Source: Bacteriovorax sp. BAL6_X
Lineage (GTDB): Bacteria; Bdellovibrionota; Bacteriovoracia; Bacteriovoracales; Bacteriovoracaceae
Length of the DNA: 64,000 bases
Direction of reading: 5' to 3'
Assembly: GCF_000443995.1 (NCBI RefSeq)
Contig: NZ_AUMC01000010.1
Coordinates: forward strand, 1-64,000
Shown here piece by piece: positions 6,902-63,129 of this stretch (within the stretch, counting starts at the first letter, position 1; every line of letters starts with the position of its first letter). The position numbers and the translations under genes are program-made. The notes beneath the pieces are model-generated. The model ran no database searches, had not been told where the DNA came from, and was given only the letters and a program-made list of their open reading frames with translations.

Positions 6902-7657
6902 ATGATGAACTTTCAAACGTCTAAATTAAAACATGTTGCAATTATTATGGATGGCAATGGGCGCTGGGCACAGAACCGCGCTCATCGTCGTGTATGGGGA
7001 CATGTGCGTGGAAGTTCTGTTGTTAGTGATGTTGTACAAAAAGCTGACGACATGGGAATTAAGGCCCTGACTCTTTATGCTTTCTCTACTGAGAACTGGG
7101 GCCGCCCACCTTCTGAAATTAGAACTCTTTTTCTTCTTTTAAAGAAATTTCTTATTAAAGAGAGAACGAGGGTTTTAAAAAATAATATTAAGTTCAATAT
7201 TATTGGTGATATTTCAAAACTTCCTAAAGATACAATTGAAATTATTAATCGACTAAAAGATGAGTCGAAAGATAATACTGGTTTAAAACTTACTTTTGCA
7301 TTTGGTTATGGTGGACGCGCTGAAATTATTAGTGCTGTAAACAAACTAATTGCTGAGGATATTGAAGTTACTGAGGAAAATATTTCTCAGGCCCTTCACG
7401 CCCCTGAATTAGGTGATGTTGATCTAATGATTAGAACTGGGGGAGATCAAAGAATCTCAAACTTTCTTTTATGGCAAATTGCATACGGTGAATTATATTT
7501 CACGGAAACGATGTGGCCAAATTTCACATGTAAAGAATTTGAAAATATTATTTATGAAGTCGAAAAACGCGAAAGACGTTTTGGGCAAGTTTGTGAAACT
7601 GAATCACTGGCCGCTTCAAAAAATAAGATTAGAAAGAATATTAGATTAATAAATTAA
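6902..7657 (+). CDS. uppS: Isoprenyl transferase (undecaprenyl diphosphate synthase)
   Basis: Condenses isopentenyl diphosphate units onto farnesyl diphosphate to make the C55 carrier used for peptidoglycan and O-antigen synthesis. Catalytic Asp17 lies in IIMDGNGRWA. The conserved segments TLYAFSTENWGRP, IRTGGDQRISNFLLWQ and ELYFTETMWPNF follow in order. At 251 residues it is normal length. Two adjacent ATGs (6902 and 6905) could start it and neither has a clear Shine-Dalgarno, so initiation may lean on coupling to frr, which ends 15 bases upstream. Confidence 0.96.
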   Translation: MMNFQTSKLKHVAIIMDGNGRWAQNRAHRRVWGHVRGSSVVSDVVQKADDMGIKALTLYAFSTENWGRPPSEIRTLFLLLKKFLIKERTRVLKNNIKFNIIGDISKLPKDTIEIINRLKDESKDNTGLKLTFAFGYGGRAEIISAVNKLIAEDIEVTEENISQALHAPELGDVDLMIRTGGDQRISNFLLWQIAYGELYFTETMWPNFTCKEFENIIYEVEKRERRFGQVCETESLAASKNKIRKNIRLIN

Positions 7658-53906: not shown

Positions 53907-56564
53907 ATGTCAAAGAAAAGATTAATCGTCGTCGACGTCAGTAATTTTATATTCCGTGCATTTTTTGCAATTCGTTCAATGAATGCTCCGGATGGAACAC
54001 CAGTTAATGCTACTTATGGTGTACTTTCAATGTTATTAAAAATTATGGCCAATTATAGGCCAACACATATGCTTCTTGCTCGAGATACTTCGGGCGGCTC
54101 TTTTAGAAATGAGCTTTATGATCAGTATAAGGCCAATCGTTCTGAACCACCTGAAGAGCTTGTTCCTCAGTTTGCACTTATTAAAGAACTTATCGACAAG
54201 ATGGGGCTTCTCAATGTTGCAAATGAAACATATGAGGCCGACGATATTATTGGGTCAACTGTTATTCAATGGAAAGATGACTTTGATGAAATCCTAATTG
54301 CCTCAGGAGATAAGGACCTTATGCAATTTGTTGGTGACAATATTAAGATGCTCGATACGATGAAGGATGTTACTTATGATGAGAAAGGTGTCTTTGAAAA
54401 GATGGGGGTACGCCCTGATCAGATCGTAGATTACTTATCAATGGTTGGGGACACTTCTGATAATATTCCAGGTATGCGTGGTATTGGTGCAAAGGGAGCT
54501 GCAAAGTTACTTGCCGAGCACGATACTCTTGAGAAATGTTTTGAAGTTTCAGATACATTTAAAGGTAAGAAATTAACAACTGCTTTTACTGAACATGTTG
54601 AGGATGCGAAGCTTTCGAAAGAATTAATTAAAATTGTTACAGATATTGATTTAGAATGTCAGGCAGAGGATTCTGAGATTAGATTCTATCCTTCAGAGGA
54701 GCTTCTGACATTTTTAAAAGATCTTGGTATGAATTCAATGATTAAGAGAATGGAAGATCTAAAATACCAACTTTCTATTGCTAATGGCGATGAAGGAGAA
54801 GGTGAAGAGCTGACATCTCCATTTGAGCACAAGGTTACGACTCTTGAAGAATTAAAAGCGATTCTTAAAGATCAAGCGGCCCTTGCGGTCCAAACTGAGT
54901 TTGATAGTGAAGATATTCATGCTCGTAATCTTGTAGGTTTAAGTATTTCATTTGATGATAACAATTCATTCTTTGTCGAAGTGAATGATTCTAATGAAAA
55001 AGAATTACTAGAGTTAATATGGGGTAATGAGTCGATAGAGGTATATAGCGAGCATTCGAAACGTGACTATTCTCACTTACTTCGACGTGGACTAGTTTTT
55101 AGGGCCAAGAATTTTGATGTCACTTTGGCCCACTATAATGTAAGCCCAAGTACAAGACATAATCTTGAAGTTATCGCATCTAATGTAAATGTAAAAGTAA
55201 CGACTCTTGATAAGAAGACTCCTTTCATTACCTCACTTGAAACGAGTGAAGATAAGGCTTCTTATTCTGGGCTAAGATCGATCGCAGTCTTTAGGCTTGC
55301 AAATCAGCTAAAAGAAGAACTTAAAGAAAAAGAACTTGTTAGTGTATATGAAGATATAGATAACAAGCTAATTTCAATATTAGCTGAAATGGAGTTTGAA
55401 GGTGTACACTTAAATAAAGAATACCTTTATGAAATGGCAAAAGATCTGCAAGAGTCTTTAGATAAAATTCAAAAGAAAGTTGATTCATATTCAATGAATG
55501 ACACAATTAATTTGAATTCACCAAAACAAGTAGGGGAGTTCTTATTTAATGAATTATCATTCCCTGTTGTTAAAAAGACGAAGACAGGTTACTCAACAGA
55601 TTCATCTGTACTAGAGGAGCTTGATTCAAAAAATATTAACGAGGTCCCAGGCTTAATTCTACAGTATCGTGAATTAGGAAAGATTCTTTCAACATATGTG
55701 AAGGCCCTTCCTGAAATTGTAAATGCTAAAACAGGAAAGGTTCATACAAGCTTTAATCAGCACGTTGCTCAAACTGGCCGACTTTCAAGTGTGAACCCAA
55801 ACCTTCAAAATATTCCAATTCGTTCCGAAACGGGACGACTTGTGAGAAAGGCATTTATAGCTACACCTGGTAACTTACTTTTAGCTGCCGATTATTCACA
55901 AGTTGAACTTAGAATCCTTGCTCACTATAGTGAAGATCCAACAATGATTAAGGCATTCAATGAAGACAAAGATATTCACGCGCAAACGGCAAGTGAAATT
56001 AACGGCATTGCCCTTGAGGAAGTTACAAGTGATGAGCGTTCAAAAGCTAAGGCAGTAAACTTTGGCCTTATGTATGGACAGTCTTCATTTGGTTTAGCTT
56101 CGGCCCTTAAAATTTCAAGAAAAGATGCTAAGGCGTATATTGAAAAATACTTTGAGAGATTCTCAAAGATCAAAGGCTTCTTAGATGGGCTTAAGGAAGA
56201 TGCTGAGAAAACAGGTTATTCAATTACAATGTATGGAAGAAAGAGATTCCTTCCTGACATTCATTCTAATAATCGAACAGTGAAGGCCAATGCCGAGCGT
56301 ATGGCCATTAATTCACCTATTCAGGGAACAGCGGCTGATATCATTAAATGTGCAATGATTAATATCGATGCAGAAATGAAGAAACGTGGCCTTAAGTCTA
56401 AAATGATTCTTCAGGTACACGATGAGCTTATTTTTGATGTTCTTGAGTCAGAGCTTGATGAGATGAAGACTCTTATTAAAGAAGGTATGGAAAACGTTGT
56501 CGAATTAAAAGTTCCACTAAAAGTCGATCCTGCATTTGGTGTTAACTGGTACGATCTAAAATAA
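53907..56564 (+). CDS. polA: DNA polymerase I
   Basis: An 885-residue repair and Okazaki-fragment polymerase. The 5'-3' exonuclease (about 1-290) and polymerase domain (about 480-885) look complete: motif A DYSQVELRILAHYSEDP near 660, motif B RSKAKAVNFGLMYG, motif C QVHDELIFD near 835. The middle 3'-5' exonuclease domain has lost key metal ligands. The Asp-Thr-Glu of Escherichia coli reads Gln-Thr-Glu, and the later Asp of exo III is absent (YSGLRSIAVF). It is therefore probably unable to proofread, as in Bacillus stearothermophilus and Taq. GGAG precedes the ATG. Confidence 0.96.
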   Translation: MSKKRLIVVDVSNFIFRAFFAIRSMNAPDGTPVNATYGVLSMLLKIMANYRPTHMLLARDTSGGSFRNELYDQYKANRSEPPEELVPQFALIKELIDKMGLLNVANETYEADDIIGSTVIQWKDDFDEILIASGDKDLMQFVGDNIKMLDTMKDVTYDEKGVFEKMGVRPDQIVDYLSMVGDTSDNIPGMRGIGAKGAAKLLAEHDTLEKCFEVSDTFKGKKLTTAFTEHVEDAKLSKELIKIVTDIDLECQAEDSEIRFYPSEELLTFLKDLGMNSMIKRMEDLKYQLSIANGDEGEGEELTSPFEHKVTTLEELKAILKDQAALAVQTEFDSEDIHARNLVGLSISFDDNNSFFVEVNDSNEKELLELIWGNESIEVYSEHSKRDYSHLLRRGLVFRAKNFDVTLAHYNVSPSTRHNLEVIASNVNVKVTTLDKKTPFITSLETSEDKASYSGLRSIAVFRLANQLKEELKEKELVSVYEDIDNKLISILAEMEFEGVHLNKEYLYEMAKDLQESLDKIQKKVDSYSMNDTINLNSPKQVGEFLFNELSFPVVKKTKTGYSTDSSVLEELDSKNINEVPGLILQYRELGKILSTYVKALPEIVNAKTGKVHTSFNQHVAQTGRLSSVNPNLQNIPIRSETGRLVRKAFIATPGNLLLAADYSQVELRILAHYSEDPTMIKAFNEDKDIHAQTASEINGIALEEVTSDERSKAKAVNFGLMYGQSSFGLASALKISRKDAKAYIEKYFERFSKIKGFLDGLKEDAEKTGYSITMYGRKRFLPDIHSNNRTVKANAERMAINSPIQGTAADIIKCAMINIDAEMKKRGLKSKMILQVHDELIFDVLESELDEMKTLIKEGMENVVELKVPLKVDPAFGVNWYDLK

Positions 56565-57038
56565 TTGTGCAGTATATATTTCCTCTCCACAGTAAATAAG
56601 CTCTGGGGAGGAAAATGTATCAGCATATCCTCTTTTAAAAAATATAATTGCATCGTGCTTATTCGGGCACAAATCTTTATAGAGTAATTTCTTAATTTCC
56701 ATAGAGCGACTTGAAACAAGATCATAGGGAGAGTTGTAGTTGATTGAAATAAAGTCCGCTGTGTAAAGGTAAGTGATAAACTCATCAAGAGTTATCAATT
56801 CATTTGGATGCAGGTAGGTTGTTATATTGTTGAATATAAATGTAGAGTTGACTGAGTCAGAAAAACATTCATCACAAATAGCTTCTTCAATTATGTCTGA
56901 ACTTTGTCCATCAAGGCAACCTATATTAGAACACTCTAGGTGTAGCTCTTTTGTAAAGCCTGGTGTCCAAATAATATTAACACTTAATGCATAAGTGCTA
57001 ATAATTGGTAAGAGAAATAATAGTATTATTGGTCGCAT
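56556..57038 (-). CDS. Exported protein of unknown function
   Basis: A 160-residue protein with a signal peptide (MRPIILLFLLPIISTYALS). The mature chain has several cysteines, in LHLECSNIGCLDG, EAICDECFSD, KDLCPNK and LIYCGEE, suggesting disulfides. I recognise no domain. Its start overlaps the end of the preceding large gene by 13 bases. Its last nine bases overlap the convergent polA. The 3' end contains an imperfect stem (about 56577-56614). Confidence 0.65.
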   Translation of the reverse strand: MRPIILLFLLPIISTYALSVNIIWTPGFTKELHLECSNIGCLDGQSSDIIEEAICDECFSDSVNSTFIFNNITTYLHPNELITLDEFITYLYTADFISINYNSPYDLVSSRSMEIKKLLYKDLCPNKHDAIIFFKRGYADTFSSPELIYCGEEIYTAQLF

Positions 57039-59656
57039 GATGAAAATAACCTCGCAAAATTTTGCTCTACTCTAACAGTTAAATCATTTTTACATTCTCT
57101 GACTTTAAATTTGTAACCATTAACAACTCTCTTCGAAGCGAATATAGTTAAATTTTTCTCAAGAACTGCCTCTACAGCTAGTTTCTCCTCTTGATTACTT
57201 AAACAGTGGTTTCCATTTAAAAGAGTCGAACGGCATCTCTTGGGAATCTCACCAAAACGTTGATATGTGGTTTTAAGTTTTTCTAAGTCTAGCTCCCATC
57301 TTCTAGGGATATTATCAAAATCAGTTAGGCCCTTATATAAACTGTAAAGTGCCCTTGCCACATAGAAGAATGGACCGAGTTTAGAATTAAAGTAGGTGAG
57401 TGTGTTAGATATGCCTTCAAAGTTGATTCGACATGCAGCACATGCAGCTCGTCGATTAGGATCTGTAGAAGATACATCAGATCCACTATTTGCGATTATG
57501 TCACCACCGCCACGATCAAAGCAAGCACCAACAGAGATACCTCTGAAATGATATAAATTCGTCGGGCTCTTAGTGCTCCCTGTAATTGATAGTGCACAAG
57601 GAACTCCAATCAATGGCCCAAATTCAGTAATTAGCTCAACGTTAACTTTTGATTTTTCATAGTCTTTATTAAATTCTATTTGCCCATCTTTTATCATCTT
57701 ATTAAAGGAAGTAACGTAGCCAGGTGTTAAGCTCACTCTTGTATAAAGAACACCAGGAGTGAAAAAACTCATTAATCCCTGACCAATATCTGACACAAAT
57801 TGAGTCATGACTTGCTTTGTTTTAAAGTAAGGATCATATACCTTGCAAGAGACTCGATCTGCGTAGGGGTTAATTAAATCTGCTGAAGCTTGTGAGAACT
57901 TTGCCTTCCAGAAAAGGTCCCCGTAGTAACTAGCGCGAGACGTTTCTATAATATTGATAATAGACTTTCTTAAACAGTGACTTATTGAACGACAAATGAT
58001 GTCTCCATTCTCATAAGTTATAAAATCTTGCGAGAGCGCGTCACTCTCGTAGTGTTGTTCTGGAAATGTTTCAAAAGTTTTTGCTGCTCTGGTCTTATCT
58101 ATATACCACTGATGAAAGCCCTCAAGCTCGATATCAAATTCACCATTCCAAATGTTTTTTTGATCTAGGCTTTTACAGTAGGCACGAGTTTCATCCATTA
58201 GGGACTTATAATAATCGATAACATCATCATAAGGCTTCTTTGAAAAAATAAGGTCAAGGTTGTCGATAAGATCTGTTCCTTTAAGGCCTTCGATATGTTT
58301 CTTTGTGAAACTAAAGATGTCATCCGAAATAACAGAAGTTTCCGCACATAGGTAATAAAGATCATTTTTGATCGTATTACCATCTAAGTTCCTAAAATAA
58401 AATGCGAGCTGTTCTTTAACTTCTTCTGGCTTAAGACGATTTCTCACAAGGGAGAAGAAAGTTAATGAATCAATGAGTTTATTTTTAACGTAGTTCTTAG
58501 TTTGAGTTTGATTTTTGAATATATGTTCTATCCATTTATCAGCATCGTTATACGAGGCGATATCGAGAATATCCTGATTAACACTCGTAAATGGATCTTT
58601 TAGAAGATCATTTTGAACCCCTTCAGATATAGGGGACAAGATGTCGAGTTCAAGAGCATCCTTCTCAAAATTCTTACGGGAGAACTCTCTAAATGAGTTT
58701 TCTGCGAGTCTTTTGTTATTACAAGCAGGAATGATGTCACTCTTACATCCACTAGGTGAAAACAGTATATAGTCTTGGGTATTCGAATTTCTAATAATTT
58801 GTTCGTATTTAGAGTTCTCAACTTTCAAGTTTTTCATTGCCCAAGCGAAGTAGAGTTTCATCGAGTTCCAGTAATCAAACCCAATTTTTTTCTCCCAATA
58901 CCTCTTTTTTATTCCTTCTATATCAAACTGGTAGCCAGATACTTGTAGGTTATCAATCTGGTCGATATCTTCTAGTCGACAATCAGTTACTCTTTCGTCT
59001 AGGTCTAGTAACTCTTGTGCGATACGGTTAAGGTCTTGAACAGAAGGCTTTTGGCCAAAAAGATTTGCTTGTAGTGGGCCAAACTTTTTTATTCTAATAC
59101 ACTTAAATGTTTCATTTTCTTTGACATATTTTTTCTGAATATAATTACTATCTTCAAAGCTATCATATAGTCGATGTTTTAACTTATGTGAGCTTGTCCA
59201 TAGTGCATCCATGTAATTATTGAGCTTTGGACACTCTAGTTTGCCATAACACTCTTTTAAGATCTTTTGATATTTGACAGGAATATTGTTTTCACTATCT
59301 AGGTAGGGTAGGAGTGGAATTTCTTGATGAATGAGTTTTTGATGAATTTCATAGAGAAGGCGCGTTACCTTATTTCGATAATCTCTAATTAGCTCTTTAA
59401 TGACTTTTGTTTTGTCTTGACCAGTACGATTTGCGAGACGATATGCTGCTTTAGCAGGTATTGTATTATTTAAGAAAACAAACATTGATGTTGTGGGTTT
59501 CTTAGAATCGATTGCGCAGGAGGCACGGTTGTTTAAGTCGATTGTTGTTAGTGGCGTAATCAAGTCATATAACTCTTGATGTTGCCAATCATGCCATTTG
59601 ATTTTCGCATAGGCCGTAAAAGTAATTAAGAATAGAAATAAAAAACCTCTCAACAT
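57026..59656 (-). CDS. Large exported protein of unknown function
   Basis: An 876-residue protein with a signal peptide (MLRGFLFLFLITFTAYA). The body is rich in tyrosine, asparagine and charged residues, with cysteines that increase toward the C-terminus (RRAACAACRINFEG, GNHCLSN). SVGACFDRGGGD and LYHFRGIS are notable short blocks; I know no family for them. The ATG at 59656 lies in the loop of a 10-bp terminator-like hairpin and lacks a Shine-Dalgarno. It overlaps the next gene by 13 bases. Confidence 0.65.
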   Translation of the reverse strand: MLRGFLFLFLITFTAYAKIKWHDWQHQELYDLITPLTTIDLNNRASCAIDSKKPTTSMFVFLNNTIPAKAAYRLANRTGQDKTKVIKELIRDYRNKVTRLLYEIHQKLIHQEIPLLPYLDSENNIPVKYQKILKECYGKLECPKLNNYMDALWTSSHKLKHRLYDSFEDSNYIQKKYVKENETFKCIRIKKFGPLQANLFGQKPSVQDLNRIAQELLDLDERVTDCRLEDIDQIDNLQVSGYQFDIEGIKKRYWEKKIGFDYWNSMKLYFAWAMKNLKVENSKYEQIIRNSNTQDYILFSPSGCKSDIIPACNNKRLAENSFREFSRKNFEKDALELDILSPISEGVQNDLLKDPFTSVNQDILDIASYNDADKWIEHIFKNQTQTKNYVKNKLIDSLTFFSLVRNRLKPEEVKEQLAFYFRNLDGNTIKNDLYYLCAETSVISDDIFSFTKKHIEGLKGTDLIDNLDLIFSKKPYDDVIDYYKSLMDETRAYCKSLDQKNIWNGEFDIELEGFHQWYIDKTRAAKTFETFPEQHYESDALSQDFITYENGDIICRSISHCLRKSIINIIETSRASYYGDLFWKAKFSQASADLINPYADRVSCKVYDPYFKTKQVMTQFVSDIGQGLMSFFTPGVLYTRVSLTPGYVTSFNKMIKDGQIEFNKDYEKSKVNVELITEFGPLIGVPCALSITGSTKSPTNLYHFRGISVGACFDRGGGDIIANSGSDVSSTDPNRRAACAACRINFEGISNTLTYFNSKLGPFFYVARALYSLYKGLTDFDNIPRRWELDLEKLKTTYQRFGEIPKRCRSTLLNGNHCLSNQEEKLAVEAVLEKNLTIFASKRVVNGYKFKVRECKNDLTVRVEQNFARLFSSCDQ

Positions 59657-59667
59657 AGAGAGGTTTT
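59642..59667 (-). terminator. Terminator-like hairpin enclosing a start codon
   Basis: Reading on the minus strand: AAAACCTCTC, loop TATGTT, GAGAGGTTTT, then TTTATTTC. The 10-bp stem plus T-run has the form of an intrinsic terminator for the gene at 59713. The ATG at 59656 of the next gene is inside the loop. Confidence 0.7.
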
Positions 59668-59691
59668 ATAATTTTGAATCTTTTTTAACAA
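59663..59691 (-). promoter_or_regulatory. Putative leaderless promoter of the 876-residue protein gene
   Basis: On the minus strand TTGTTA (59691-59686) is followed after 15-17 bases by TATAAAAC (59670-59663). A start 6-7 bases beyond would fall at or just before the ATG at 59656, so the 5' arm of the hairpin would be largely absent from the new transcript. Sequence-based guess. Confidence 0.35.
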
Positions 59692-59712
59692 TTAAAGAAA
59701 AGCTTAATTAAT

Positions 59713-60237
59713 TTAGCTTCCATTATTTGCTGTACAGCCACTTGCTCTTCCTATGATCGTTGTATAGAAAAGGATCATTGCTTCATCAGCAGGAGTGAAG
59801 CCACGGCGTGTATTACCATCTGTGTCAAGTAGACCATACATATAACGGTTAATAGCAATATAAACAGACCTAGGTACCTTAATACGTTGAGTACATTTAC
59901 CGTTGTAGTATCTAACGTTAACTCCCCAGTATTCTCCACTGATTTGGCCACCGTAACCTCCTGTATAGATATTTACTCCACTTCCTGCTTGTTGATTCAT
60001 TCCTTCACCGATATTGAAGCCAACTTCAAAACCAGCAAACTTATTCTCATTTGAAAAGAGAGTACATTCACCTTTACGACATGAAACCTTAATATCCTCT
60101 TCAATTCGTAGCAAAATCTCTTCATTAGAGAATTTTTCAAATTCAAATTGATCCTCTCCGCCTCCAAACATGTTGTCGACATCATTTGCATAAACAGATG
60201 ATGTCATAATTAAAAATACTAACAGTAATCTTTTCAT
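59713..60237 (-). CDS. Exported protein of unknown function
   Basis: A 174-residue protein from the ATG at 60237, behind GAGGAG; an upstream in-frame start at 60258 would place seven charged residues before the signal peptide (MKRLLLVFLIMTSSVYA). The mature part has an acidic start, then VSCRKGECTLFS, a glycine-rich segment (GMNQQAGSGVNIYTGGYGG) and a C-terminal helical region with RASGC. Four cysteines could pair. No family recognised. A terminator-like hairpin follows 45 bases later. Confidence 0.65.
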   Translation of the reverse strand: MKRLLLVFLIMTSSVYANDVDNMFGGGEDQFEFEKFSNEEILLRIEEDIKVSCRKGECTLFSNENKFAGFEVGFNIGEGMNQQAGSGVNIYTGGYGGQISGEYWGVNVRYYNGKCTQRIKVPRSVYIAINRYMYGLLDTDGNTRRGFTPADEAMILFYTTIIGRASGCTANNGS

Positions 60238-60262
60238 CTTTGTTCTCCTCAATTCCATGCTG

Positions 60263-61909
60263 TTAAAAGTCTATGTCACCAATGCCATCGTTATCATCCC
60301 AGTCATCGTCGTCACTATGGTCAGTTCCTGGTTTCATACATGTTGAAAATGGTGGTTCATAAGCTTCGATTAATTTGTTCCCTTGTACGTTTGATAATTT
60401 TTTGTATGTCAAATACTCCACTTTAAATCTATCTTCATCCTTGGATACTTTGAATTGTACCTTTAGTGTAAGTTGGTGATCTTTAGTATTTATACATTTT
60501 TTATTATGACAGTATCTCTGTATATATGGTGGCCACAAAAAGTCTTTAAATACTCGGCTAATTGAATTAACACTATTCTTAACTGCCACATGTGTATTAC
60601 CTGTGAATCTTAAATAGTCGAAGACAGGAAATTCAGGAAGTGATTGAAGTACTTCAATACTGTTGAATTCGTTTAGTGCTCTAAGCGCACCTGCTTCTCT
60701 ATCGATTTCAGGGATCGTTTTATTATTTAGTTTTAGTCTACTCGTGATACTATTTTTAAACATGAGGTAGTAAAACTCTTGATCTTCTAAATTGATTTCT
60801 AACTCATATACAGCACCTTCTTTGAAAGTATTCTTTGGTAGTAGTTGTCCTGCTCCATTGAGTAAGCCTGACCAATTACTTGGTGTAATTCCACCATCAT
60901 ACCAAAGAGAAATAAATTCTCTTTCACCATCCTTTTTTACTTCACTTAACAGGTACTCACCAACGACTGGTTGAGTATAACTACATGGTGATGAGCATAT
61001 TCCATTAACGCATGTTTTTTGACATGTGTTATTTATGAAAACACTAGAATCTAGTTTTATTGATTCATTACCATGTCCACTTACTTTAATCTTACCCATT
61101 TCTATATTGTTAACATGCCACTCTATTGGCCACTTTGGATCATTCTCGAGTACTGTTTTCTCACTCTTAATAATTCCTTCTGCGGTTGCAGTAAGTCTTA
61201 GCTTGTAGTCTTTAACGAATTTTAGTTTTGGTGAACTACCACTGTCATCTCCGGAAATATAGAAGTCTAAAGTGGCAAGTACATCTTGAAGTTCCATTTC
61301 TCGTTCTCGATAAAACTCTTCATTAAGACACTCGTCTTTTACAGAGAAGTCTAACTCAAATTTCGAGTCAATATAAGGTTTTGCAAAACAAAAGTAGCCT
61401 TCAAAAATTGCTGTGTGATTGTTGACTTTATTTACTATGCATCCATTCTGATTGAGGGAGATGTTTAAACCTTTTTTTGAATAATCTGTTATTTTAAGCT
61501 CTGTACATTTGCTTATTAATTCTCGTCTGTTTAGTAGGCGCTTGTGTAAGAAATCAACGCTAATAGATAAGTTATCATTGTATTTGTCTTCAATTCGACA
61601 ATACTTAGTGTTTTTGCTATTTATCGTGTTCATGTCATTAATGCTGTATGTTTGAACACTGTCATCGAACATATTATTTTCAACACCTAAACTTATCATA
61701 AGATATTCATCGTTTGCAGCCGTTGGTATACAGTCAGTTATATCAAATTTGATACCATCCTTAAGTTCGTTCCCCTTTTCGTTGTAAATAAACTTCGAAC
61801 TTTGAAATGGTGAGAAGGTGATATTTAACTCTTTATTAAGGGAGTTGACTTTACACGCAAAGGCCATTGAAAATAATGCATGAATTATTGTTATGATAAG
61901 TATTTTCAT
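60263..61909 (-). CDS. Exported protein with acidic tail, unknown function
   Basis: A 548-residue protein with a signal peptide (MKILIITIIHALFSMAFA). The mature chain appears mostly beta-stranded with scattered cysteines; CQKTCVNGICSSPC near residue 298-311 is a dense cysteine knot. The last about 20 residues are a run of Asp with Trp and Gly (HSDDDDWDDNDGIGDIDF), resembling calcium-binding acidic tails. I recognise no domain. It shares the strand and spacing of the exported-protein run 56556-62991. Confidence 0.65.
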   Translation of the reverse strand: MKILIITIIHALFSMAFACKVNSLNKELNITFSPFQSSKFIYNEKGNELKDGIKFDITDCIPTAANDEYLMISLGVENNMFDDSVQTYSINDMNTINSKNTKYCRIEDKYNDNLSISVDFLHKRLLNRRELISKCTELKITDYSKKGLNISLNQNGCIVNKVNNHTAIFEGYFCFAKPYIDSKFELDFSVKDECLNEEFYREREMELQDVLATLDFYISGDDSGSSPKLKFVKDYKLRLTATAEGIIKSEKTVLENDPKWPIEWHVNNIEMGKIKVSGHGNESIKLDSSVFINNTCQKTCVNGICSSPCSYTQPVVGEYLLSEVKKDGEREFISLWYDGGITPSNWSGLLNGAGQLLPKNTFKEGAVYELEINLEDQEFYYLMFKNSITSRLKLNNKTIPEIDREAGALRALNEFNSIEVLQSLPEFPVFDYLRFTGNTHVAVKNSVNSISRVFKDFLWPPYIQRYCHNKKCINTKDHQLTLKVQFKVSKDEDRFKVEYLTYKKLSNVQGNKLIEAYEPPFSTCMKPGTDHSDDDDWDDNDGIGDIDF

Positions 61910-61937
61910 TTCCCCACCCCATAGTTTCTTTGAAAAG

Positions 61938-61960
61938 AGGGCAAGGCGTTAGCCTTGCCC
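61938..61960 (-). terminator. Terminator after the amber-interrupted gene
   Basis: The perfect 9-bp stem GGGCAAGGC/GCCTTGCCC with a GTTA loop ends 20 bases past the TAA at 61981-61983. On the minus strand it is followed by TCTTTTC. Confidence 0.8.
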
Positions 61961-61980
61961 AGTGTACTTAAAATTAATTC

Positions 61981-62991
61981 TTAGTAAGATAAGTGTTTAG
62001 ATGTGATAGCTGTATCAGTACAGATATTTGCACCATGTAGCTTCCATCTTCTTACTGTATCGATTGGATCTCTACCACGTGTTTTTTCTTTGAAAGTGTA
62101 TCTAACCATACAACCCTTAAGGTCGCTTTTGTTGAAGATATCTGTGAAATCTGCAATATCGTTTACGGAAAGATCTTTCTTAGCAAATCCAAGAGAGTAG
62201 TGACCACCGTAACCTTTATCAACACAGAAGATTTCTGACTTAACTTTTAAGTTAGCAAGTTCTTGGTATGTTTGGTTTGCCCATACATCACCATAGCGTG
62301 GGAACTTGTCACCAGTGTAGTCATTTGGACTCTTAAGGTCTGTAACAGTTACCTTTCTTTCAAACTTGTATTTCGGCTTCTTGTTACCAAAATCGATCTG
62401 AGTTGCTCTGTAACAAATGTCAACGAAGTACTCAGCACCATATCTTTCTGAAGATAGGTTAACCGTAAGTTCTTTGATTCTATGGTCGAATTGCTAAACG
62501 TGTGGTAGAAGTGTTGCATAGTTACCAGAGTGATTGTCTGCAACAGCTTTCTTGTACCATGAGTAACCTTGTGGATCACCGTGATCTTTCCATTTTGTGA
62601 TTTTTGCTTTCATGAAATCAATTGTTGCTTCATGATCCCCATTTTGTTCACCAGTACAAACACAGTCACAACCTTCACCTGTTTGAGGGTCACACGAACC
62701 GTTGTAAGACTCTGGTTGAGCGTCAAGTCCTGCAAAAAGATTGTCTAGTCCATCTCCATCTCCGACTAGAGGTTCTGCTCCACCATAGCCACCACCGCGT
62801 TTCGGCGTACATGACTCATAGGTATTTGGGTTATAACAAACTTGTCCTCTCGGCTCTTTGTGCTTAATACCGGCATTACACGGATAAATTGATGAGCCTG
62901 ATGAATATACATCAAAATTAAATTGTACTCTCGCCGCTTGCGTCGAGAAGGCTCCCATTAAAAGAGCCGAAGCTAATAGTAATTTTTTCAT
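61981..62991 (-). pseudogene. Full reading frame of an exported protein interrupted by one in-frame TAG
   Basis: Read through, this frame encodes 165 residues, a TAG at 62496-62494, then 170 further codons to TAA at 61983-61981. The second part looks fully coding, with even codon bias and residues such as ERYGAEYFVDICYRATQ and DKFPRYGDVWANQTYQ. It has no ATG, GTG or TTG near its start from which to be made separately. One TAG is the only break: no frameshift and no other stop. The codon after the stop is CAA followed by TTC. Either a nonsense mutation, a base error in the assembly, or a leaky stop. TAG ends several neighbouring genes, so the code is not changed here. Confidence 0.75.
62494..62991 (-). 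CDS. Exported Cys-rich protein (upstream part, to the TAG)
   Basis: The 165-residue part before the in-frame stop. It has a signal peptide (MKKLLLASALLMGAFSTQA) and a very strong ribosome-binding site (AGGAGAGGG, about six bases before the ATG). The mature chain has paired cysteines (CDPQTGEGCDCVCTG) and a Gly/Asp-rich centre. The last residues, GNYATLLPHV, run into TAG. The strong ribosome-binding site suggests that this is an expressed gene, not a relic. Family unknown. Confidence 0.75.
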   Translation of the reverse strand: MKKLLLASALLMGAFSTQAARVQFNFDVYSSGSSIYPCNAGIKHKEPRGQVCYNPNTYESCTPKRGGGYGGAEPLVGDGDGLDNLFAGLDAQPESYNGSCDPQTGEGCDCVCTGEQNGDHEATIDFMKAKITKWKDHGDPQGYSWYKKAVADNHSGNYATLLPHV

Positions 62992-63129
62992 TACCCTCTC
63001 CTTTTTAGTTAGGTTGTTAGATAAAAAATATTGATGAATGAATTTGTAGCAATCGTTTTTTTGAAAGTCGAGAGGGTCAAGGTTAGAAGGCTTGAATTTG
63101 TACTTAATTAACCGGCTTTTAAGAAAAGG

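What the first reader, a model, noticed from the sequence alone, without database searches (positions are those of the whole stretch)
61981..62991. Strongly translated exported protein split by a single in-frame TAG
The frame from 62991 has a signal peptide and a strong AGGAGAGGG ribosome-binding site. It runs 165 codons to TAG at 62496-62494, then continues in the same frame with good coding character for 170 codons to TAA at 61983-61981. It is followed by a clean terminator. The second half has no standard start codon near its beginning. Nothing else is damaged, so this is either a very recent nonsense mutation, an assembly error, or a leaky stop giving a short and a long exported form. The stop is followed by CAA TTC, close to known CAA-type readthrough contexts, though that is weak evidence. 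Several nearby genes end in TAG, so codon reassignment is not supported.
Basis: partly seen in the sequence, partly recalled or inferred. Interest (0 to 1): 0.7.

Follow-up and report, generated by a model that had tools for sequence, protein, structure and literature searches.

The report
Exported-protein gene broken by nonsense mutation
In this Bdellovibrio-like bacterium a conserved gene for an exported protein carries one in-frame stop codon that its relatives lack at that place, most likely a recent mutation that truncates the protein; it is an ordinary pseudogene-type lesion, though it sits in an uncharacterised gene cluster shared by related bacteria.

Summary
In detail: window 62991-61981 (minus) holds 165 codons, TAG, then 170 codons in the same frame to TAA. 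Both halves are one gene: in 36 of 37 distinct homologous frames, sequence on both sides of the TAG position lies in one open frame. Of 36 genomes with the family, none other has this stop; one (G048) has a different, independent in-frame TAA at codon 5. The TAG lies in a variable stretch just before the most conserved motif and inside a single predicted beta-sandwich, so the short product would lack the family core. TAG is an ordinary stop here (96 of 434 sampled ORFs), RF1 is present, and no CTA-anticodon tRNA or PylS over cut-off was seen. The second half shows no decay. Nothing supports a programmed leaky stop: not conserved, no domain boundary, no unusual RNA structure. Best reading: a recent nonsense mutation (less likely a base error) in the first gene of a conserved, uncharacterised exported-protein cluster. 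Reads, conspecific strains and proteomics were not available.

The parts
62994..63002 (-). Shine-Dalgarno-like AGGAGAGGG of the split gene
   Evidence: read directly; GGAG within 20 nt before the first ATG of the open frame in 22 of 25 relatives shown
62497..62991 (-). first part, 165 codons: signal-peptide-like N-terminus plus first part of the family domain
   Evidence: matches the N-part of homologues in G001-G003
62494..62496 (-). in-frame TAG, followed by CAA TTC
   Evidence: no stop at this place in the 37 distinct relatives
61984..62493 (-). second part, 170 codons, with the most conserved motif of the family (NLSSERYGAEYFVDICYR)
   Evidence: keeps 24 of 26 conserved columns
61981..61983 (-). 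TAA that ends the full frame
61939..61960 (-). terminator-like hairpin GGGCAAGGC-TAAC-GCCTTGCCC with T-tail between gene 1 and gene 2
   Evidence: a terminator-like hairpin follows gene 1 in 26 of 35 relatives
60263..61909 (-). 548-aa exported-type protein, open, second gene of the conserved cluster
   Evidence: only a below-cut-off Pfam match, no NCBIfam match at E<=1
59713..60258 (-). 181-aa protein, open, cluster member (true start probably a few codons in)
57026..59656 (-). 876-aa protein, open, cluster member
56556..57038 (-). 160-aa protein, open, cluster member

Best explanation
The locus is one ancestral gene for an exported, cysteine-containing beta-sandwich protein of a family found here in Bacteriovorax-, Halobacteriovorax- and Bdellovibrio-type bacteria. 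In this genome a single recent nonsense mutation has put a TAG at codon 166. RF1 should end translation there almost always, so the main product is a truncated exported protein without the conserved second half of its single domain, most likely unfolded and degraded. The gene is thus a very young pseudogene, or a loss-of-function allele segregating in the species, with at most trace full-length protein from background readthrough. A different, independent stop in the same gene of another genome (G048) suggests that losing this gene is tolerated, perhaps even favoured, now and then. Shown: the stop, single-gene ancestry, its privacy to this genome, absence of other damage, normal use of TAG. 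Inferred: that the base is real, that the short product does not work, and that readthrough is low.
For: Homologues carry both parts in one open frame: G001, G002, G003 of the same genus in 315, 308 and 314 aa, and 36 of 37 distinct homologous frames in all (the exception, L047, has no first half in its frame). Among 36 genomes with a family match of 129 searched, three had a stop flagged in the main gene: this one; G052, where it is the terminal stop; and G048, where a TAA stands at codon 5 after AGGAGG-spacer-ATG, inside the signal-peptide region. So this TAG is private to this genome, and gene 1 has been hit independently elsewhere. The gene heads a cluster with conserved order. The stop column is variable in relatives (N 10, D 8, E 4, T 3, S 3, nine residues once each, of 37): no conserved recoding site. 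The model puts residue 166 in a short helix right before strand 170-178 of one sheet-rich domain (pTM 0.68, mean pLDDT 63), and 48 of 50 listed structural matches run from about residue 27-33 to 332-336. In 464 kb of this genome 96 of 434 ORFs end in TAG and no other ORF has an unexplained in-frame extension of 100 codons or more. RF1 is intact (500 bits, cut-off 423). The second half has no second lesion and keeps 24 of 26 conserved columns, both deviations also occurring in relatives.
Against: The second half shows no decay, which is also what a translated, selected second half would show. No reads, no conspecific genome and no expression data are held, so 'recent' and 'real' are not proved. 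The age bound is weak: a second stop would be expected with 95% chance only after about 58 random substitutions in the second half (11% divergence). The genus relatives are only 38-41% identical in this half, so their lack of the stop says little about this species. The comparison with genes 2 and 3 of the cluster flagged stops in several genomes too; I did not resolve which are terminal, so gene 1 is not shown to be hit more often than its neighbours.
Confidence: 0.74

Rival explanations
1. Base error in the assembly: the organism has an intact gene and the TAG does not exist.
For: Only one codon separates the frame from the uninterrupted arrangement of relatives, and nothing else in it is damaged. 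The other cluster members are open.
Against: G000 is a good assembly (10 contigs, 99.98% complete), and single-base substitution errors in such assemblies are rare (general knowledge, not tested). In a 464-kb sample no second interruption of this kind was seen. A different stop in the same gene of G048, a 2-contig genome, makes real loss of this gene more plausible.
Confidence: 0.12
2. Functional leaky stop: the TAG is read through at a useful level, giving a short (165 aa) and a long (336 residues) exported form.
For: Second half intact and coding-like; a strong ribosome-binding site and first place in a cluster followed by a conserved terminator-like hairpin suggest high expression; the stop column holds many different residues in relatives, so an inserted residue would probably be harmless.
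Against: Stop in no relative; not at a domain boundary; no unusual RNA structure (z -1.23, 25 of 200 shuffles as stable); local bases do not match the readthrough-prone contexts of an E. coli study (PMC11126739 section 10); TAG is a common stop in this genome; no suppressor tRNA seen.
Confidence: 0.09
3. TAG is recoded genome-wide (reassignment, pyrrolysine, or an amber-suppressor tRNA).
For: None beyond the open frame itself.
Against: 96 of 434 sampled ORFs end in TAG; three of these have an in-frame extension of 60 codons or more, two of which are the next gene with its own start and the third is this gene. RF1 present. PylS model: no match over cut-off (21 of 178 bits, like most control genomes). 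31 tRNA genes found, none with anticodon CTA; the list is incomplete (150 of 200 candidates scored; no tRNA-Ile GAT in it), so a missed tRNA is not excluded.
Confidence: 0.02
4. The two halves are now two separate genes, the second made by internal restart.
For: Both halves are intact.
Against: No ORF of 80 aa or more with ATG/GTG/TTG starts inside the second half; the second half would lack a signal peptide; no relative shows such a split except G036/L047, whose second-half frame of 174 aa has no first half, possibly a rearrangement.
Confidence: 0.03

Closest known systems
Young bacterial pseudogenes with a single premature stop codon
   Same: one nonsense codon in an otherwise intact, still coding-like gene with uninterrupted orthologues in relatives
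   Different: no difference found; expression and base support were not testable
Leaky UAG readthrough (tobacco-mosaic-type UAG CAA context; recalled)
   Same: TAG followed by CAA and a long open in-frame extension
   Different: the recalled CAR-YYA consensus is met only in part by CAA TTC and belongs to eukaryotic ribosomes; stop not conserved; not at a domain boundary; no RNA element found
Uncharacterised exported-protein cluster of Bacteriovorax-, Halobacteriovorax- and Bdellovibrio-type bacteria (in B. bacteriovorus kdesi, L077, a few kb from an FHA-GGDEF gene matching PDB 6hbz)
   Same: gene 1 - 548 aa - (paralogue) - 181 aa - 876 aa - 160 aa, in this or a rotated or inverted arrangement
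   Different: in this genome the paralogue of about 410 aa is missing and gene 1 has the TAG

Membership tests
Nonsense-mutation pseudogene | orthologues in relatives are one uninterrupted frame across the stop | tested here: met
   36 of 37 distinct homologous frames; conserved gene order
Nonsense-mutation pseudogene | stop is lineage-specific, not a conserved recoding site | tested here: met
   no other of 36 genomes with a match has this stop; G048 has a different one at codon 5
Nonsense-mutation pseudogene | truncated product lacks an essential part | tested here: met
   most conserved motif and the C-terminal strands lie after the TAG; model confidence moderate (pLDDT 63), essentiality itself not tested
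Nonsense-mutation pseudogene | relaxed selection after the stop | tested here: inconclusive
   24 of 26 conserved columns kept, no further lesion; no conspecific sequence to measure selection
Nonsense-mutation pseudogene | the base is real and no full-length protein is made | not testable with these tools
   no reads, transcriptome or proteome held
Functional stop-codon readthrough gene | stop and extension conserved together across species | tested here: not met
Functional stop-codon readthrough gene | stop at a domain boundary so that both products are complete | tested here: not met
   (moderate-confidence model)
Functional stop-codon readthrough gene | stimulatory context or RNA structure | tested here: inconclusive
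   RNA after stop z -1.23, 25 of 200 shuffles as stable; CAA context only recalled from eukaryotic cases
Functional stop-codon readthrough gene | long product detected | not testable with these tools
   no proteomics or ribosome profiling
Pyrrolysine / reassigned TAG | PylS present | tested here: not met
   best match 21 bits against a cut-off of 178
Pyrrolysine / reassigned TAG | tRNA with anticodon CTA present | tested here: inconclusive
   none among 31 tRNA genes found, but the tRNA list is incomplete
Pyrrolysine / reassigned TAG | TAG rare or absent as a terminator | tested here: not met
   96 of 434 sampled ORFs end in TAG

The most novel reading that the evidence does not exclude
In this species the first and probably most abundant product of a conserved exported-protein cluster is deliberately capped by a leaky TAG, so that a small, tunable amount of full-length beta-sandwich protein is made beside a short form, perhaps making up for the paralogue that its genus relatives keep and this genome lacks; the separate early TAA in G048 would be another form of the same throttling of gene 1.
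Probability: 0.06. Interest if true: 0.55.

Novelty: new member of a known kind. Interest (0 to 1): 0.17.

Why it matters
As a recoding candidate it would have mattered; as a nonsense mutation it is ordinary. Worth keeping is the context: an unnamed exported protein family, without a Pfam, NCBIfam or solved-structure match at the thresholds used, that heads a conserved cluster shared by Bacteriovorax-, Halobacteriovorax- and Bdellovibrio-type bacteria, with a terminator-like hairpin after the first gene in most relatives, and whose first gene is broken by two unrelated stops in two genomes. If real, these natural null alleles are a handle on whether the cluster matters for predation.

Tried and rejected
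Codon reassignment, pyrrolysine and suppressor tRNA: see rivals. Internal restart: no suitable start.

Hit-locus idea: the Bdellovibrio homologue lies near 108 kb of the kdesi chromosome, which suggested the bd0108/bd0109 host-interaction locus, where mutations allow prey-independent growth (PMC3818213 and PMC5430801, passages seen). No tad-pilus gene was recognised by eye among the ORFs of L077; one neighbour matches PDB 6hbz, a GGDEF domain protein (E 6.8e-182), and one passage of PMC6733907 places a calcineurin-like gene bd0740 in the operon of dgcB/bd0742, which fits L077 by eye. Idea dropped.

Literature on the cluster: searches for locus tags bd0726-bd0741 and bd0747-bd0752 (bd0742-bd0746 not searched) listed 0 to 4 papers each; I opened only a passage of PMC2797640 (bd0736 and bd0737, putative lipases) and of PMC6733907. 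The HD100 tags of the cluster are not known to me, so this is no proof that it is unpublished. 'Bacteriovorax' with 'premature stop codon' gave 0 papers. Searches were otherwise seen as listings only; PMC11126739: passages and section 10.

Same site in other DNA of the species: a 32-base pattern with the stop codon left open gave 0 matches in viral contigs; second half in phages, no match; read-through protein in plasmids, no match. Genome contigs gave 13 relatives, at most 37% identical.

Named fold: Foldseek had no match at E<=0.001; VIA-align best Z 7.2 (3wso_A, 124 residues, 3.9 A), in the range the tool calls common; only 'beta-sandwich' is claimed. A family profile found nothing in PDB sequences at E<=1.

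Paralogue loss as a cause: the paralogue of about 410 aa that lies between genes 2 and 3 in five relatives gave no match of its own in this genome, but it is also not seen in L073 and is moved in L069, L075 and L080, so no link to the TAG is claimed.

Corrected on re-check: I had taken the stop flagged in G048 for its terminal stop; searches show it is an early TAA. For that reason the odds moved slightly (nonsense mutation 0.72 to 0.74, base error 0.14 to 0.12). Genes 2 and 3 as a control: 37 of 129 genomes each have a match and several matches carry flagged stops; these were not resolved one by one.

Full report
What is there. On the minus strand, ATG at 62991-62989 opens a frame of 165 codons to TAG at 62496-62494, and the same frame goes on for 170 codons to TAA at 61983-61981. 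An AGGAGAGGG site precedes it and a 9-bp hairpin with a T-tail follows at 61960-61939. No start codon gives an ORF of 80 aa or more in the second half. Chance does not explain the open second half: about 1e-5 for 170 codons from composition, and its in-frame codon score (0.240) is like that of the first half (0.219) and within the range of 13 other window genes (0.12-0.39), with all other frames negative.

One gene, one lesion. Searching each half apart in the genus (6 genomes, this one included) found both halves in one frame in three of the other five: G002 (308 aa), G001 (315 aa) and G003 (314 aa); the other two (87% and 73% complete) gave no match. Over the order, the second half matched 33 of 129 genomes; a family profile matched 36 of 129. 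Of 42 homologous loci examined, 37 were distinct; in 36 of these one open frame spans the TAG position, and the remaining one (L047, G036) has only the second half. L071 is cut by the contig start and L076 by a contig end, but both span the site. Besides this genome, one search flagged a stop in the main gene of two: in G052 it is the terminal stop; in G048 it is a TAA at codon 5, after an AGGAGG site and ATG, inside the signal-peptide region, where same-genus relatives read on. So the TAG is private to this genome, and a different stop has hit the same gene elsewhere. Whether G048 restarts at an ATG five codons on is not known.

Where it falls. The TAG column is variable in relatives (N 10, D 8, E 4, T 3, S 3, nine residues once each; 37 rows, gappy region), a few residues before the most conserved motif, NLGSERYGAEYFVDICYR. 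An AlphaFold model of the read-through frame from 12 sequences has mean pLDDT 63 and pTM 0.68; residue 166 lies in a short helix right before strand 170-178, and strands come from both sides. Structural matches are middling (best Z 7.2), but 48 of the 50 listed run from about residue 27-33 to 332-336, so the model is one beta-sandwich made of both parts. The first part alone is therefore not a complete domain. Confidence is moderate and coordinates were not inspected.

Is the second half decaying? In a leave-one-out count over 36 sequences (L047 and L071 left out), at columns where 85% of the others agree this gene keeps 18 of 18 before and 24 of 26 after the TAG; relatives keep 17-26 of 26-28 after it, and both deviations occur in relatives. 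About 5% of random substitutions in the second half would make another stop, so its absence bounds neutral divergence only loosely (50% point 13 substitutions, 95% point 58). The stop is young, or the second half is still selected.

Is TAG read differently here? In the window 10 of 56 ORFs of 100 aa or more end in TAG. In 464 kb of this genome (the window plus 400 kb in blocks that I chose), 434 ORFs of 80 aa or more end in TAA 291, TAG 96, TGA 47. Twenty-seven have an in-frame extension of 60 codons or more; in 24 another listed ORF overlaps the extension (23 on the same strand, one on the other). Three are not so explained: this gene (170 codons), one TGA case (76) and one TAA case (81, with its own ATG near the beginning). 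RF1 is present, the PylS model has no match over its cut-off, and none of 31 tRNA genes has a CTA anticodon, although 50 of 200 first-look candidates were not scored and tRNA-Ile(GAT) is not in the list.

Is there a readthrough signal? The 100 nt after the TAG fold at z -1.23 against shuffles. The base after the stop is C and the five before it are ACGTT. In an E. coli reporter study readthrough followed TGA > TAG > TAA, G near the stop raised and T lowered it, and predicted mRNA structure did not correlate with it (PMC11126739, passages and section 10). Nothing here marks a leaky site, though background readthrough of TAG is expected and the inserted residue would probably be tolerated.

Context. 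The gene is the first of a cluster of exported-type proteins: gene 1, 548 aa, 181 aa, 876 aa, 160 aa. Genes 1, 2, the 181-aa and the 876-aa gene keep this order in all five relatives compared (G001, G002, G003, G007, G008); the 160-aa gene was matched in four (in G008 with the Bdellovibrio copy only), and not in G001, where the 876-aa homologue is in two ORFs near the contig end and the 181-aa gene is doubled. Of 13 named loci from genome contigs, eight hold gene 1, 2 and the other members, some rotated or inverted, among them Halobacteriovorax and Bdellovibrio; four short or cut contigs hold part; L081 shows gene 1 alone. Pfam gave one below-cut-off match, for the 548-aa protein; NCBIfam one far below cut-off, for the 181-aa protein (the 160-aa protein was not given to it). 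In the five relatives a paralogue of about 410 aa sits between the 548-aa and 181-aa genes; this genome has none. A terminator-like hairpin after gene 1 is found in 26 of 35 relatives (duplicates, L047 and L076 left out), mostly with different sequences, against 2% of mononucleotide shuffles. I infer that gene 1 is made in excess of the genes behind it. As a control for lesions, profiles of genes 2 and 3 each matched 37 of 129 genomes; several matches carry flagged stops that I did not resolve into terminal and internal ones, so no excess in gene 1 is claimed.

Verdict. The best reading is a recent nonsense mutation that truncates an exported protein, with a base error as the main alternative and functional readthrough unlikely. 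No reads, conspecific strains, transcripts or peptides are held, so base reality and expression remain open. Interest is low; the conserved cluster, and the two unrelated stops in its first gene, are the parts most worth following.

Noticed in passing
L068 (G048:C1 near 2207109, minus strand): In genome G048 the same gene has a different in-frame stop, TAA at codon 5 within the signal-peptide region after AGGAGG and ATG; an independent lesion.
   Followed up: partly
window 56556-62991 (-); L069-L081, L084-L088: Conserved cluster of exported-type proteins (about 335, 548, 181, 876, 160 aa) without Pfam match over cut-off, shared by Bacteriovorax-, Halobacteriovorax- and Bdellovibrio-type genomes; in B. 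bacteriovorus kdesi it lies a few kb from an FHA-GGDEF gene matching PDB 6hbz.
   Followed up: partly
window 61939-61960 (-) and the 90 nt after gene 1 in relatives: Terminator-like hairpin right after the first gene in 26 of 35 relatives, mostly of different sequence (2% in shuffles), suggesting that gene 1 is produced in excess of downstream genes.
   Followed up: yes
window 60258-60263; L084 12181-13416: A second paralogue (about 410 aa) between genes 2 and 3 in five relatives is missing here; also not seen in L073, and elsewhere or inverted in L069, L075, L080.
   Followed up: partly
L047 (G036:C43 near 6933-7388): In genome G036 only the second half of this gene was found, next to a family-like frame on the other strand; a rearrangement or an assembly artefact. 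A second gene-2 match in G036 (C65) carries four flagged stops.
   Followed up: partly
window 62698-62796 (-): The first half of the split gene has an insert of about 33 residues, rich in Gly and Asp (residues 66-98), whose columns are filled in at most 6 of 35 relatives.
   Followed up: partly
L088 8436-12332 (G001): In G001 the 181-aa gene is doubled in tandem and the 876-aa homologue lies in two ORFs of 574 and 282 aa.
   Followed up: no
L077 12321-13469: The paralogue in B. bacteriovorus kdesi holds a long Gly-Asn repeat in its middle.
   Followed up: no
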